A DNA stretch of 64,000 nucleotides. Origin: Ascidia mentula. Taxonomy: Eukaryota > Chordata > Ascidiacea > Phlebobranchia > Ascidiidae. Under the pieces are notes generated by a model. It saw nothing but the letters and a program-made list of their open reading frames with translations. It did not search any database and was not told where the DNA came from. The stretch is from the NCBI GenBank assembly GCA_947561715.1, contig OX387204.1, positions 10,979,001 through 11,043,000 of the forward strand. Direction: 5' to 3'. The translations under genes and the position numbers were made by a program. Of this stretch, positions 1,336 to 60,400 are shown piece after piece. Every line of letters starts with the position of its first letter. The first letter of the stretch is position 1.

Positions 1336-41568
<40,233 letters not shown>

Positions 41569-51023: not shown

Positions 51024-51029
51024 TTTATT
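51024..51029 (-). promoter_or_regulatory. Candidate polyadenylation signal for the SYTL-like gene
   Basis: AATAAA on the minus strand lies about 175 bp past the stop codon at 51205-51207. Position and strand fit, but no cleavage site can be seen from sequence alone. Confidence 0.4.
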
Positions 51030-51204: not shown

Positions 51205-54200
51205 TTAATAATATGTCGGTTTCATGTTTAGACGCAGAGAAAGACAGGCGTTTGCTTCTTCGCTAGGATGATCAAAAGCCTGTTGCCAAAGAGACAACTC
51301 GTTTTCATTAGATCCCAATTTTGTGTCAGTTGTTTCTAAACACAAATAGTATTACGTTTGAGAGCTGCAGACAGGGTGTATACACGCACTGTTTCGACCT
51401 GTAAGGTCTCATCAGTGCAGCTGTTGATGTGGCACTGTGCTAGTAGGCACACAGATTTCCACTTTGGGGTACCTTTCGGTCAATCGTCGTATACACCCTG
51501 TCTGCAGCTCTCATTGATTATCATGGCTCTTTTGCGCAAGTATTACGTTTGTTTGAGTGATAAAACGTGCTAGAAGGATTTTATCTTTCAACACATTTCA
51601 TTTGACATGGATTATCTTATGATTATTCGGCAATCAACTTAGTTATAGCCTATTCTTTTACCATCTCGACTGGACAGACGAACACCGCCAACAACCACAG
51701 CTTTTCCAATGGTAAATGTAAGGCCGCAAACAAGTATTTCGAAGCATCTGTCTTCAAACTCGGTTTTGTTGAAACCACGGTACACAAATTTGTGACTGTA
51801 ACTGTACGAAAATAATGATATTTTTTTTAAACAGAAAAAACTTCGTAAATAAGTTAGGAACAATGCACAAAAAAATAACTAGGCCTACATGAGTTATTTC
51901 AGCTTGTTTCATAATTACATGGGACTGTTGCATCCTTTAACGACCGAGCTTCTCATCTTTGCAGCATGAAAACGGTCTGGTATCATATAACACTTTACAT
52001 AGGTGCGCGACTTGTTTCTAAAAAACAGTGATAGATTTTAGTTTTATGACCCGATAGTGTGGAATTGCATGTACTTTGTGACTCCAGGGCTCAGAGATAT
52101 ATTATGTGCTCCATGAATCTCAATGTGTAGCTCCGCATCATCATCTTCTCTGGCACCACTTTCTGTACCTTTTAGAATTGAAAGTTTGGCTCCAGTCAGC
52201 AAAACATAATCTTTCCGAGCAACGACGCTGGTGTCTTGGCTTGTCGAAGACCCACTGTCAGAAAAAAAAATTCAGTTACAAAAAATGTCAATTAAACGAT
52301 AACTTTAGAAAAACAGATGACCTACATTTGCAAAAGGACTTCGCCTAAATCTAATCATGTGTCATGGTGTAATGCAATTTAATATTTTAGTGTTACCACA
52401 AAAACCGCAATAAAGTTAAATCAACCTTTTTCTGGTAATTGTCCTTTGAGTGTTTGGACTGTGTCCTGGTGGGAAGTACGTCAAGGAAATGTCCAGTAGA
52501 CCTGTCTGCAACAAAATGTTGTGGGATTGTATTGGCCTGTTACCAGTGCTGGATTAAAGCCTTGTCTAAGTCATATGGTGAAAAGTGGCTGGAATATAAG
52601 TTATATATAACTTTTATATTGCGCCCACCAAGAATAGAGTAAACCTAATAAAGAACAAAATCGTCAATAAATGTTTCGGAATTTGCAAATGAGTTGATCG
52701 TTCGATCCAATAAAGAGTGCCAAAATGTTGTTGATTGTCTAACCTGCTGAATCCTGAATTTACGCCATAATGTGTTTAAGTGGCCTGGACTTGGTCAGCC
52801 CTAGACATAGCTTTTTTACTTACTGGTCAAATCGACATTGTCTGTTACACAGATTATTAGTATCAACAAACTGGCTACTTCGTGAACAATCTTTACCCCT
52901 TCAATTGCTTGATCCTGGGATTCGGTGACTTTTTCAGTATCATTGCCTGAAAAATTTTGAAGAGCAAAAATAGTTTGACGACTTTGTTGCATTTAACTTG
53001 CTAATGAAAAAAATTCAATAAAGACATTTACCAGATTGTATTTCTTTTATTGGTGATTCTGTTTTTTTTTCTTCAAGCTGAAATATTAAGCAAAATGCTG
53101 TCAAGCCCTCTGACAAAATAATGAATGTTTTGTGTAAAAAATGAAATGAAAACCTACAATTGCAATGCTCGGACTGGGCGGGTTATCAATCGTGGCATCT
53201 GCGAAAAATCAATATTAGTTTAAATACTGTACAAACCATGACAGTCCACTAACCCCCTTTATGCGGGTGGCCAGAAAGGTGCTTTGTGGGAATTAACAAG
53301 TTTAACCATAATGCTGCTTGGGAACAAATTACTCTAAAATAAAATTTCGCATGTTGTTTATTTAAGGGACATGTTGCCAATTTAATCAACATATGTTGGA
53401 TACATAAGCAACGTGTTAATTTATACGAATTATGACTCTTCTGGCCGCATATAGGACGCATATTGGTGTTTCTATTAAAATAAGTTTCACCGACGGGAAA
53501 TGCCAAGTTTGTAGTCGATCCTCTGCCACAATAAAAGGAGGACGTCATAAAGCAATCGGTGATACATGTGGGTTAATTTTCAGTGAAGTGAGCACATATA
53601 CATGTGCTGTTGCTAGGGCGAATTTTAGCCAGTTTCGGGCAGTTTTATTGGGGTTTTGGGCGTTTTAAGTCAGGTAGCTACTTGGTGCCGGGTGCTGTAG
53701 AAAATAGGGCTAGAAAGGCAACTCAAACTTCAATGAAAGATCCATCCCACATCTATCCTTTCTGGTCAAAATTAGTTGCATTTTTGACCCCTGGGGGCAT
53801 TTTATTCCCCCCGGTTGGACATTATTATTAAAAAGTAACAAAAACTGCAATTAGATGTTGCAGAAAATGAAGCGTATAAGTATCCTGTGTTTGAAGCCCA
53901 TCTATCCTCTACACAATAGCACCAAAGTTAGTTGCTGAAGAATTAGGCTGTTTCTGCCCCCCTGTAGGTCACAAGATCTTACCGGAGGCTCCACAAATCC
54001 TTCCTGTGTACTGTCCCGTTCAGGTGCAATAGTATTTTATTTTAAGTTTGAAGAATATTAGGTCCCAATATAAGTCACAAGACACAGAAACGATTATCGG
54101 GAAACAAGTGCAACAGTCGACAGAAGCATTATTGCAGAGGGCCTTAAAAACAGAATTTCTTTGGTTTAATTCGATATTTAGGTCTTATACCTTTCAATCC

Positions 54201-57476: not shown

Positions 57477-60400
57477 TTATTCATTGTTTAAGAGGGTTTG
57501 ATCATCATCTTCACTATTGTCTGTGTCAGCATTTTCTTCATCTTCAGATACCTTGAAGAAAACACAAGGAGAAACATTTACAACATGTAAATTTCACAAT
57601 AAAGCTTTAAGCAGCAATTTTCTGTCAAATGCCAATTTTCCATACACACGATGGGTGAAACATCAAATGCATGTCTGGTAAGCCAGGCTAATTAATGTCA
57701 TTGTTAGGGTGGCAATGTAGATAAAACACTTTTTCTCACCATGGCAGACAAGTAATGGGACAGGTCAAAGTTGAGAGAATTGGTACTACTACTATAACAT
57801 ATTGACATACAGACATATTAAATTAACAGATTCAAGTTACAACTTTTAAAAGATACAATGGCAACCAATGGGACAATCCATAAAGAAGATAACAAACTAT
57901 CTACTTGTCTAAAGTTTAAAAAGGAGCACCTTTAATATTGGGTTTGAATTTGCAAACCTCATGTAAATTTAAACCATTGCTCAAAATAAAATTAAGAAAA
58001 AAATATCTACAAGTTGGAAATGCAAAAGGGTTTAGCATTATAATATCAGAAAACATAATATATGGCAAATAAAAAAGTACAATAATTACATAAAAAGGTC
58101 GCACCACCAGGAAAATTTTCCTGGTGTCATGAAATTCTCTAAAACTCAGATGTTCAGGTAATTGGATCACTAATGAATAATGACTCAAAACTAATAAAAC
58201 AAAATTCGACCTTCAACGGAAAATTGCAAGCAATCAGCTATTGTTGCTAGAATTACTTTAAGTGTTGAATCACTCCATTTGCATTATGATGTTAAAAAAT
58301 AACACAATGTTTAGTTTTTTGTTGTTGAAAGTTTTAAAAGAGTTATTTAGTTTAATTCTGCTTCATTACCTCAGCACCAAAGTTTTTAAGCATTTGCTTG
58401 TATTCTTTAATTTTTAGTTCTTGATCTGATAGCAAAATAAGCAAATCCTCTTGTTCTTTTCGTAAAGAGTCTGTATTCATAACCTGTTCTTGTATTTCAG
58501 CATTTTTTGCCAACTCTAGATCATTAATGTGGATTTGGAGTTCCTCAAAATCTTTTAATAATCGACATTTTTCAGCCTAAAAACAGTCATAAAAATAGGG
58601 CAAAATAACAATTGTTTTACCAGTAGTATAGCAATAATACTCAATTTAGTTTGCGACCCCGGAGGTTGACAAAGCATATTCATCCACCCATTTTTTTAAA
58701 TTATGTATCATAAAACAGAAAATAACAGCAATTAGGTCTTTTGTAGACATTTCTTTGCATTTTTGCATGATTGACACTCATTAAGTTCGTGAAGTGTCAA
58801 ATAAAACATAAACACACAAACCCCCACAAAAAAATTGAATACAAAGTAACACCTCTAAATTCTTGCAACGAGCTTCCAATTCATCCTTTTCTTTTTCAGC
58901 AATTTGACAGGTTTTGCAAAATTCCTGTCATTATAAAAAGCAGCAGGTTGTAAACCATATACACCTTTATTAGATAAATGTCATGCTTACCACATTGTCT
59001 TCCTCATTATGATTCATTGTCGAAGCATCTTCAGTTTTCTAGGAATTTGTGTGTTTAATTGTTTATTTTGACACAAAAACTAGCAATTAAAACATATTTT
59101 TTTTACCTTTTCATCCGGTTTTTCTATTTCATGCATTTCCTTTGTTGGTGGTTTTGCTTCATCTCCACCTATACAAGATATTTATGACCTCTTCCACAAC
59201 ACATTAGTATTTATTAAAGTCAAACCTTGCATTGTCTTTAGTAAATTGTATTGATCTTTAAGCTGCTGAACTTGGGAATCACGCTCCTGAATATGTTTGT
59301 TGCTTGCAACAAGGCTATTTTCCAGCTCATCACATCTTAGTTGCAGCGAGGCAACTTTTGTATCCTAACATGTAATTGTAACTATTAAAAGGGACACAGT
59401 TTTACATGTTAAGTAAGAATCCCAAAAACTTTTTTACTATCTTTGGACATAAATCAAGTATACCTGTTCTCTTATTAAAGTCTTGTATTCTGATATAATA
59501 GAATCATGTGCTTTTATGGCAGCCTTCACTTCCTCCTCTTTTTTTATGTCTTCCAGGTTGGAAACGGTTTTTACAATTCTGTCTGCACAAATAGTTTTTT
59601 TTAAACACAATAAATGTAAAAATCTGGCAGTAAATGTACCTTCCAAAGCTTTGAACAGCTTTGCAAAGGAGTGATCAAACAGTAGATTACTTGCTGTATC
59701 ACTAGTCGGCTGATGTTTTTGTAGTGCTTTAGCATACAAATCATTTTGAGACACATATGATAAAGCATCGCAGAAATTCTCCACTCCAACACGAGAATCC
59801 ACAAGTTCAATCAAAGATTCTCTTTAGACATATCATATTGATTAGTTCATGCCTTCGTACAGCAGAAACTTCACATACTTAGTATAAAGTGATATTGACC
59901 CATCGTTATCCAAAATGCATATCCCCAATAATAGGGTACACACTCCTTTCACCAAAAGATCATGATCAGTTCCGCTTACTACAAGTTGACTTAACAACTA
60001 TGCATGGCATTTGAAAAGTTAAAAGGCAATACAGAGTTAAAAATTGTTTAATTACCAATACCACATAAAACAAAATTTTTCAGAGGATACAAATGAGACC
60101 GTAGATTCATCTTCAAGGAAATGTGAAATTGCTACTGGACATGCTGTCAACCAGCAACACAGCAAATTTAGTAAACCAATGCTAGTTTGTGGCTGACTGG
60201 CCTAAAACACAAGAGAATTTGGCTTCAGAAATCATTAACTTTGTAGAGCATGCACAACCCATGACCTGAAGTGCATTATTTGGTGTGGTCTACATAGTAT
60301 TGTTTATAAACTTGTATGTAATATATATTAGTTAAAAATAGGGGATCTATTTTCAAAATATATATGGTCATGGCTAGGGATGTACCGAAAGTTCAGTTTG

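What the first reader, a model, noticed from the sequence alone, without database searches (positions are those of the whole stretch)
51364..51421. Intact hammerhead ribozyme in sense orientation inside the last intron of the SYTL-like gene
All core residues (CTGATGA, GAAA, GTC) and three helices are present on the strand that is transcribed with the host gene. The predicted cut is 34 nt before the terminal exon's 3' splice site. If active during transcription, it would separate the exon encoding the end of the C2B domain from the rest of the pre-mRNA unless splicing is faster, so it could tune the amount or form of the protein. Intronic hammerheads are known in vertebrates. One this close to a splice acceptor, brought in by a datable insertion, is unusual.
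Basis: partly seen in the sequence, partly recalled or inferred. Interest (0 to 1): 0.88.

Follow-up and report, generated by a model that had tools for sequence, protein, structure and literature searches.

The report
Self-trapped hammerhead in retrozyme insertion
A sea squirt gene carries in its last intron a recent copy of a very common jumping RNA element that contains a self-cutting ribozyme motif, but the way the copy was inserted left an antisense strand right beside it that probably keeps the ribozyme misfolded and silent.

Summary
A complete type I hammerhead core lies on the minus strand at 51422-51363, cut site 51370|51369, 34 nt before a terminal exon that aligns with the end of a synaptotagmin-like C2B domain.

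The family has 293-bp tandem units, short target duplications and, in 25 of 25 scorable inserts, inverted ends with a 27-nt tail at exactly one end. That is Penelope-type anatomy on an animal retrozyme.

Folding puts the hammerhead 37 kcal/mol above the resulting hairpin (5 with the arm scrambled), and the arm pairs before the cut site is transcribed. I expect cleavage here to be largely blocked and the insertion near-neutral. Regulation of the gene is possible but unsupported. Predictions are thermodynamic; no RNA data were available.

The parts
51363..51422 (-). Type I hammerhead ribozyme motif, predicted cut between 51370 and 51369
   Evidence: Descriptor; constrained fold; Rfam only below threshold
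51359..51488 (-). Sense part of the insertion: 3' part of the retrozyme unit, ending ...CTGCAGCTCTCA
   Evidence: Genome copies
51489..51513 (+). Antisense arm: exact reverse complement of 51359-51383, covering cut site, 3' strand of helix I and 3' strand of helix III
   Evidence: folding
51359..51383 (-). Sense partner arm containing the cut site
51514..51540 (+). 27-nt tail at the inverted end only (last two bases overlap the target duplication)
51539..51551 (-). Target-site duplication, copy upstream in the transcript (CAAACGTAATACT)
51348..51360 (-). Target-site duplication, copy downstream in the transcript (first 2 bases shared with the element end)
51336..51661 (-). Host intron, GT...AG, 326 nt
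51205..51335 (-). Terminal coding exon (end of C2B domain, stop codon)
51662..51801 (-). Penultimate exon inferred from reading frame and homology
   Evidence: splice sites read by eye

Best explanation
The feature is a partial copy of a non-coding hammerhead retrozyme (unit about 293 nt) that was inserted into the intron by Penelope-type machinery. Inferred from the anatomy: both target strands were primed, one at the CTCTCA site and the other 27 nt further 3' (the tail), and the two cDNAs were joined head to head; self-priming is an alternative way to the same product. Shown by the sequence: the product has an antisense copy of the ribozyme's cleavage strand 5' of the ribozyme in the same transcript. 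Inferred from folding: in the pre-mRNA the two arms form a 25-bp hairpin as soon as the 3' arm emerges, so the hammerhead rarely folds and the intron is spliced out as usual. The ribozyme's real role lies in the family's life cycle, cutting multimeric transcripts into units that are probably circularised (from the literature, not tested), not in this gene.
For: Direct repeat and inverted arms. Genome family: 128 matching pieces to the insertion, several per locus, with only 40 of 1,774 candidates scored; 1,302 copies of the 16-nt 3' end with at most 1 mismatch against 2 in the control; 1,738 exact matches to CTGATGA-helix II-GAAA, cut strand not included, against 0. Tandem units of 293 bp and 285-286 bp in a second subfamily. 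Direct repeats of 9-15 nt at 15 of 21 flank rows, 14 of 20 distinct sites. One tailed and one untailed inverted end in 25 of 25 scorable inserts out of 41 loci; two of them (L009, L061) share flanks, so 24 are independent; 19 of the 25 have an 8-15 nt direct repeat within 6 nt of both ends. An autonomous Penelope pair in the same genome has the same design: 4,797-bp palindrome, 12-bp duplication, 32-nt extra at one end only. Folding of 51668-51336: hammerhead +37 kcal/mol; 5.3 on average in 50 arm shuffles; arm fully paired (10 of 10) in the RNA ending at 51374, before 51370 is made. 30 of 50 intact hammerheads in the 41 loci have an upstream antisense arm of at least 15 nt, 0 of 50 downstream. 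Precedent: an antisense oligo over the cut site left 80% of the Cpeb3 ribozyme uncleaved at 30 min against 20% in the control (PMC10919898, passages).
Against: Folding is equilibrium or prefix minimum energy, not kinetics; the left arm is partly self-paired in the nascent RNA, so a fast hammerhead could win in some molecules. The lock is not general: 20 of 50 copies lack the arm, and 6 of the 30 with an arm cost less than 10 kcal/mol in a fold reaching 330 nt upstream, while 5 of the 20 without an exact arm cost 10-35. No Penelope element carrying this family's ends was found among the loci examined. In the purified anole Penelope protein there was no apparent difference in start site between top and bottom strand (PMC11167929), which does not by itself predict one tail per insert; that paper also saw hammerhead cleavage only with protein added and not needed for insertion. 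Head-to-head inverts have also been explained by self-priming (PMC3846280). No RNA data were examined.
Confidence: 0.75

Rival explanations
1. One reading: the hammerhead is active during transcription, cuts the last intron and tunes the amount or form of the SYTL-like protein.
For: Intact core, identical over 60 nt to the commonest form in the loci fetched (53 of 89 hits, some loci fetched twice). Sense orientation. Minimum-energy fold of the isolated motif is the hammerhead. Published precedents of intronic ribozymes affecting splicing (PMC10919898, passages; PMC6155905, passages).
Against: 25-nt cis antisense arm over the cut site; +37 kcal/mol. Even without the arm the hammerhead is about 5-9% of the predicted ensemble. 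The outer part of helix I (ATCAA with TTGAT in a tandem copy) is lost because the insert ends at CTCTCA. Insertions are numerous, so position alone is no sign of function.
Confidence: 0.12
2. The 25-bp hairpin itself, not catalysis, is what acts: a structured RNA ending 23 nt before the exon that alters splicing or is processed or edited as double-stranded RNA.
For: Fold of the 216-nt stretch at -86.2 kcal/mol, z -8.1, 0 of 200 shuffles as low. Candidate branch-point sequences are duplicated by the target duplication (by eye).
Against: No RNA data; the pre-insertion 3' splice signals downstream of the hairpin look untouched (by eye).
Confidence: 0.08
3. A miniature inverted-repeat DNA transposon that carries a hammerhead by accident.
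For: Terminal inverted arms and target duplications.
Against: Ends are asymmetric (tail at one end, 25 of 25), duplications vary from 8 to 15 nt, tandem head-to-tail multimers and variable internal joins occur.
Confidence: 0.03
4. Chance or decayed hammerhead look-alike with no ribozyme history.
For: No Rfam match over threshold.
Against: 0 look-alikes in 60 simulated windows; CTGATGA-helix II-GAAA kept in 1,738 exact matches against 0 in the control.
Confidence: 0.02

Closest known systems
Animal non-LTR retrozymes with type I hammerheads (Cervera and de la Pena 2020, PMC7229834; parts 1-2 of 6 and passages read)
   Same: Type I hammerhead, non-coding unit of about 300 bp in dimers and multimers, target duplications longer than 4 bp, coexistence with Penelope-like elements
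   Different: Inverted head-to-head ends with a single tail are not mentioned in what I read (the word 'inverted' occurs 0 times in its main text). GC of the unit is 47.8%, above the <45% of their Figure 1 legend, within the <50% of their text. Circular RNA not tested here
Penelope-like elements (PMC3846280, passages; PMC11167929, parts 1-2 of 4)
   Same: Inverted terminal copies, an optional extension or tail of about 30 bp at one inverted end, short target duplications, reverse transcription starting at two adjacent internal sites that bound the tail, both DNA strands cut and extended
   Different: The element here encodes nothing; no RT or GIY-YIG part
Intronic hammerheads of amniotes (RECK and others; PMC6155905, passages)
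   Same: Type I hammerhead in introns, thought to derive from retroelements
   Different: Those are deeply conserved; this one is a single insertion with intact target duplication and a predicted blocking antisense arm; its conservation was not tested
Cpeb3 intronic ribozyme (PMC10919898, passages)
   Same: Intronic self-cleaving motif upstream of an exon; antisense over the cut site blocks cleavage
   Different: HDV-like, conserved in mammals; the antisense there is an added oligo, here it is built in

Membership tests
Hammerhead ribozyme, type I | Conserved core (CUGAUGA, GAAA, UH before the cut) and three helices with open helix I | tested here: met
Hammerhead ribozyme, type I | Covariance-model score over Rfam gathering cut-off | tested here: not met
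   The 20 other family loci scanned also stay below the cut-off; in the genome search with Hammerhead_1, 7 matches, none over the cut-off, 73 of 27,659 candidates scored
Hammerhead ribozyme, type I | Loop I - loop II tertiary contact | not testable with these tools
   An internal loop beside helix I is predicted in a tandem copy; the contact was not modelled
Hammerhead ribozyme, type I | Self-cleavage | not testable with these tools
   Needs a bench assay
Animal non-LTR retrozyme | Tandem non-coding units of about 150-450 bp with a type I hammerhead | tested here: met
   293-bp spacing; hexamer with 285-286 bp spacing; longest stop-free stretch in the doubled unit 89 aa
Animal non-LTR retrozyme | Target duplications longer than 4 bp | tested here: met
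   9-15 nt in 14 of 20 distinct sites
Animal non-LTR retrozyme | Low GC (below 50% in text, below 45% in figure legend) | tested here: inconclusive
   Unit 47.8%, window insertion 49.4%
Animal non-LTR retrozyme | Expressed as linear and circular RNA | not testable with these tools
   No RNA data held
Penelope-like element | RT and GIY-YIG open reading frame | tested here: not met
   The insertion is 180 bp and the unit 293 bp, with no long reading frame
Penelope-like element | Insertion signature: inverted ends, tail at one end, short target duplication | tested here: met
   25 of 25 scorable inserts of 41 loci; same design in an autonomous pair in L044
Regulatory intronic hammerhead | Conservation across species | not tested
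   No second haplotype or related tunicate was examined

The most novel reading that the evidence does not exclude
Penelope-type two-sided priming is what mobilises animal retrozymes, and by its chemistry it fits many copies with an antisense lock on their own ribozyme, so that a genome can hold over a thousand hammerhead copies, including sense copies next to splice sites, with little harm. Unlocked sense copies would then be depleted in introns.
Probability: 0.25. Interest if true: 0.72.

Novelty: new variant of a known kind. Interest (0 to 1): 0.5.

Why it matters
Which enzyme mobilises animal retrozymes is open: the authors who described them named Penelope-like elements as a strong candidate from shared hammerheads, tandem copies and coexistence (PMC7229834, passages). 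A family whose inserts carry the Penelope end signature in 25 of 25 scorable cases is direct sequence evidence for that. The built-in antisense arm suggests a simple reason why a genome may tolerate many hammerheads in genes, and it gives a clean prediction for RNA data. For the gene itself it is a caution: an intact ribozyme motif in an intron is not evidence of cleavage until the flanking antisense is considered.

Tried and rejected
Type III reading: Rfam Hammerhead_3 aligns at 51386-51440, but that alignment has no UH cut site in place; rejected in favour of type I. SNORD25 match (18.8 bits, cut-off 39): below threshold, taken as chance. Chance motif: rejected. DNA transposon: rejected (asymmetric tail, tandem units). 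Helper search, limited to L029-L055: 9 hammerhead-like hits, in L040, L041, L044 and L052-L055; none inside a Penelope reading frame. The two in L044 lie about 0.7 kb beyond the end of one, but as a retrozyme insert with its own target duplication, so that is neighbourhood, not linkage. Helper not found; the genome was not searched for it exhaustively. PDB search with the last 93 residues alone: 0 matches up to E 1; the terminal exon rests on the SYTL2a alignment. Upstream exons: of 6 open stretches none gave a C2 or SYTL domain, nor did the single exons; a coiled-coil match (Uso1_p115_C) lies at 58352-58576. In one search the helix III count is wrong through an index slip and was not used. 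In one search, L013 was classed untailed/untailed because of a hit 560 nt outside its insert, and was dropped from 26, leaving 25; the outer left hit of L027 is likewise outside the insert, without changing its class. Sampling: 39 of the 41 loci come from the similarity-ranked list, whose query included the antisense arm; some loci are duplicates of one another (L009 and L061; L011 and L064 share a flank). The second sample (10 loci) was picked by hand from TTACA-loop places among the first 100 listed on one chromosome, leaving out close pairs and others to save letters, and reached only about 450 nt upstream, so 4 of 10 may be low.

Full report
Observation. The minus strand holds a complete type I hammerhead core at 51422-51363 with a cut predicted between 51370 and 51369, 34 nt before an exon. 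A strict descriptor finds it once in the window and never in 60 simulated windows. Rfam at gathering thresholds finds only two tRNAs in the window; below threshold the best matches are RAGATH-1-hammerhead and Hammerhead_3. The 20 other family loci scanned also gave no hammerhead over threshold, and a genome search with Hammerhead_1 gave 7 matches, none over the cut-off (73 of 27,659 candidates scored), so these models are a poor test for this family. The isolated motif has the hammerhead as minimum-energy fold, but a rival pairing of GCACTG with CAGTGC leaves it about 9% of the ensemble.

Host gene. Splicing by eye gives a 182-aa stretch with a Pfam C2 match (E 2.6e-7). The protein search, which is limited by length and scored 49 candidates, gave one match, a fish synaptotagmin-like 2a (E 1.1e-7), aligned as far as query residue 177 of 182 and so through the terminal exon. 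Solved-structure matches are C2 domains of RIM2, PI3K-C2alpha and rabphilin and stop before that exon. The exon 51335-51205, in phase with the previous one, ends in a stop and is followed by AATAAA at 51029.

Organism. The window lies at 10,979,001-11,043,000 of contig C72 in a 195.8-Mb genome. The nine large contigs match the nine chromosome lengths of Ascidia mentula kaAscMent1.1, C72 being chromosome 8 (contig lengths; table, passages of PMC11109543). This is inference from lengths.

The insertion. A 13-nt exact direct repeat flanks a 180-bp insert, which has 25-nt perfect inverted arms. The insert gives 128 matching pieces in the genome, several per locus, 40 of 1,774 candidates scored. 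The genome has 1,302 copies of the 16-nt 3' end (at most 1 mismatch; control 2) and 1,738 exact matches to CTGATGA-helix II-GAAA (control 0); the latter pattern does not include the cut strand. Units repeat in tandem every 293 bp. A second subfamily forms a hexamer with 285-286 bp spacing. This fits the published description of animal non-LTR retrozymes (PMC7229834, parts 1-2 of 6 and passages).

How it was inserted. I marked the 3' end piece S and the 27-nt tail T in 41 loci. 26 were classed as having outer ends in opposite orientation; one (L013) was an artefact. In the 25 others one end is S alone and the other is tailed; 15 loci showed only one orientation at the outer ends. L009 and L061 share flanking sequence, so 24 are independent; 19 of the 25 have a direct repeat of 8-15 nt within 6 nt of both ends, and 6 do not. 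The Penelope literature describes the same design: inverted pLTRs, a 31-bp tail optionally present at one of them, short target duplications (PMC3846280, passages), and reverse transcription starting at two adjacent internal sites that bound the tail, with both DNA strands cut and extended (PMC11167929, parts 1-2 of 4). Two points there do not fit neatly: in vitro no difference in start site between the strands was seen, so one tail per insert needs a further reason; and head-to-head inverts were earlier put down to self-priming. In this genome 121 GIY-YIG matches were listed among 150 scored candidates, and one autonomous pair (L044) is a 4,797-bp palindrome with a 12-bp duplication and a 32-nt extra at one end only. 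I infer that Penelope-type machinery places this retrozyme. The helper itself was not found among L029-L055.

Consequence for the ribozyme. The head-to-head joining puts the antisense of the cleavage strand upstream of the ribozyme. In 51668-51336 the hammerhead-constrained ensemble is 37 kcal/mol above the free ensemble; in the element without its left arm the gap is about 2. Fifty shuffles of the 25-nt arm give 5.3 on average, range 2.7-10.1. In prefix folding the arm is paired over all 10 available positions when the RNA ends at 51374, before the cut site exists; with the RNA ending at 51377 it is not yet paired. The left arm is itself partly structured in the nascent RNA, so a minority of molecules may escape. 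Published work gives a close analogue: an antisense oligo over the Cpeb3 cut site left 80% of the ribozyme uncleaved at 30 min against 20% in the control, and slow ribozymes placed in introns did not affect splicing (PMC10919898, passages). The window copy also lacks the outer helix I predicted in a tandem copy.

How general. Of 50 intact hammerheads in the 41 loci, 30 have an upstream antisense arm of at least 15 nt within 700 nt and none has one downstream; the median cost is 55.8 against 3.6 kcal/mol for the 20 without. The split is not clean: 6 of the 30 cost less than 10 (fold reaching 330 nt upstream), and 5 of the 20 without an exact arm cost 10-35. These loci were ranked by similarity to the window copy; in a hand-picked chromosome sample of 10, with about 450 nt of upstream sequence and close pairs left out, 4 have the exact 11-nt antisense upstream and one has no legible cut site. 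So the lock is common, not universal.

What is in print. Searches for hammerhead with intron and ascidian (0 papers), Penelope with inverted, tail, target duplication and hammerhead (20 of 35 listed), retrozyme with inverted repeat, Penelope and tail (10 of 57 listed) and tunicate with hammerhead (1 paper) showed no title or abstract start describing this family or this lock. I read passages or parts of eight papers and could not read the 2014 Penelope hammerhead paper. The library holds open-licence papers only, so this is no proof of absence.

Verdict. A true hammerhead motif in a real intron of a real gene, but a member of a very abundant family, probably locked by its own insertion scar. 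The interesting part is the Penelope signature and the lock, not the proposed regulation.

Noticed in passing
window 14583-14658 (+): A 54-bp remnant of the same family with its tail end, flanked by an 11-bp direct repeat AAACAGTGCTC.
   Followed up: partly
window 32191-32271 (+): A tiny insertion of about 57 bp that is almost exactly one hammerhead of the TTTTA subfamily, flanked by ACAAAAATGTAA, with a changed core base (CTGTTGA), hence probably inactive (the flanking repeat read by eye).
   Followed up: partly
window 14936-15343: Two tRNA-Thr(GGT) genes in the arms of a 183-nt, 98% inverted repeat. A 121-nt piece recurs at 39 other listed places in the genome (40 of 1,869 candidates scored), some in tandem every 366 bp and some inverted: perhaps a tRNA-derived repeat moved in the same two-sided way.
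   Followed up: partly
L075 (C1:3332100-3334500): Hexamer of a second retrozyme subfamily (285-bp unit, loop TTTTA) plus one inverted copy; its two ends also look like one tailed and one untailed (by eye).
   Followed up: partly
L039 and L042: Penelope-like elements in direct tandem (2,868 bp at 99.97% identity in L039) and next to a satellite with a period of about 138 bp (L042).
   Followed up: no
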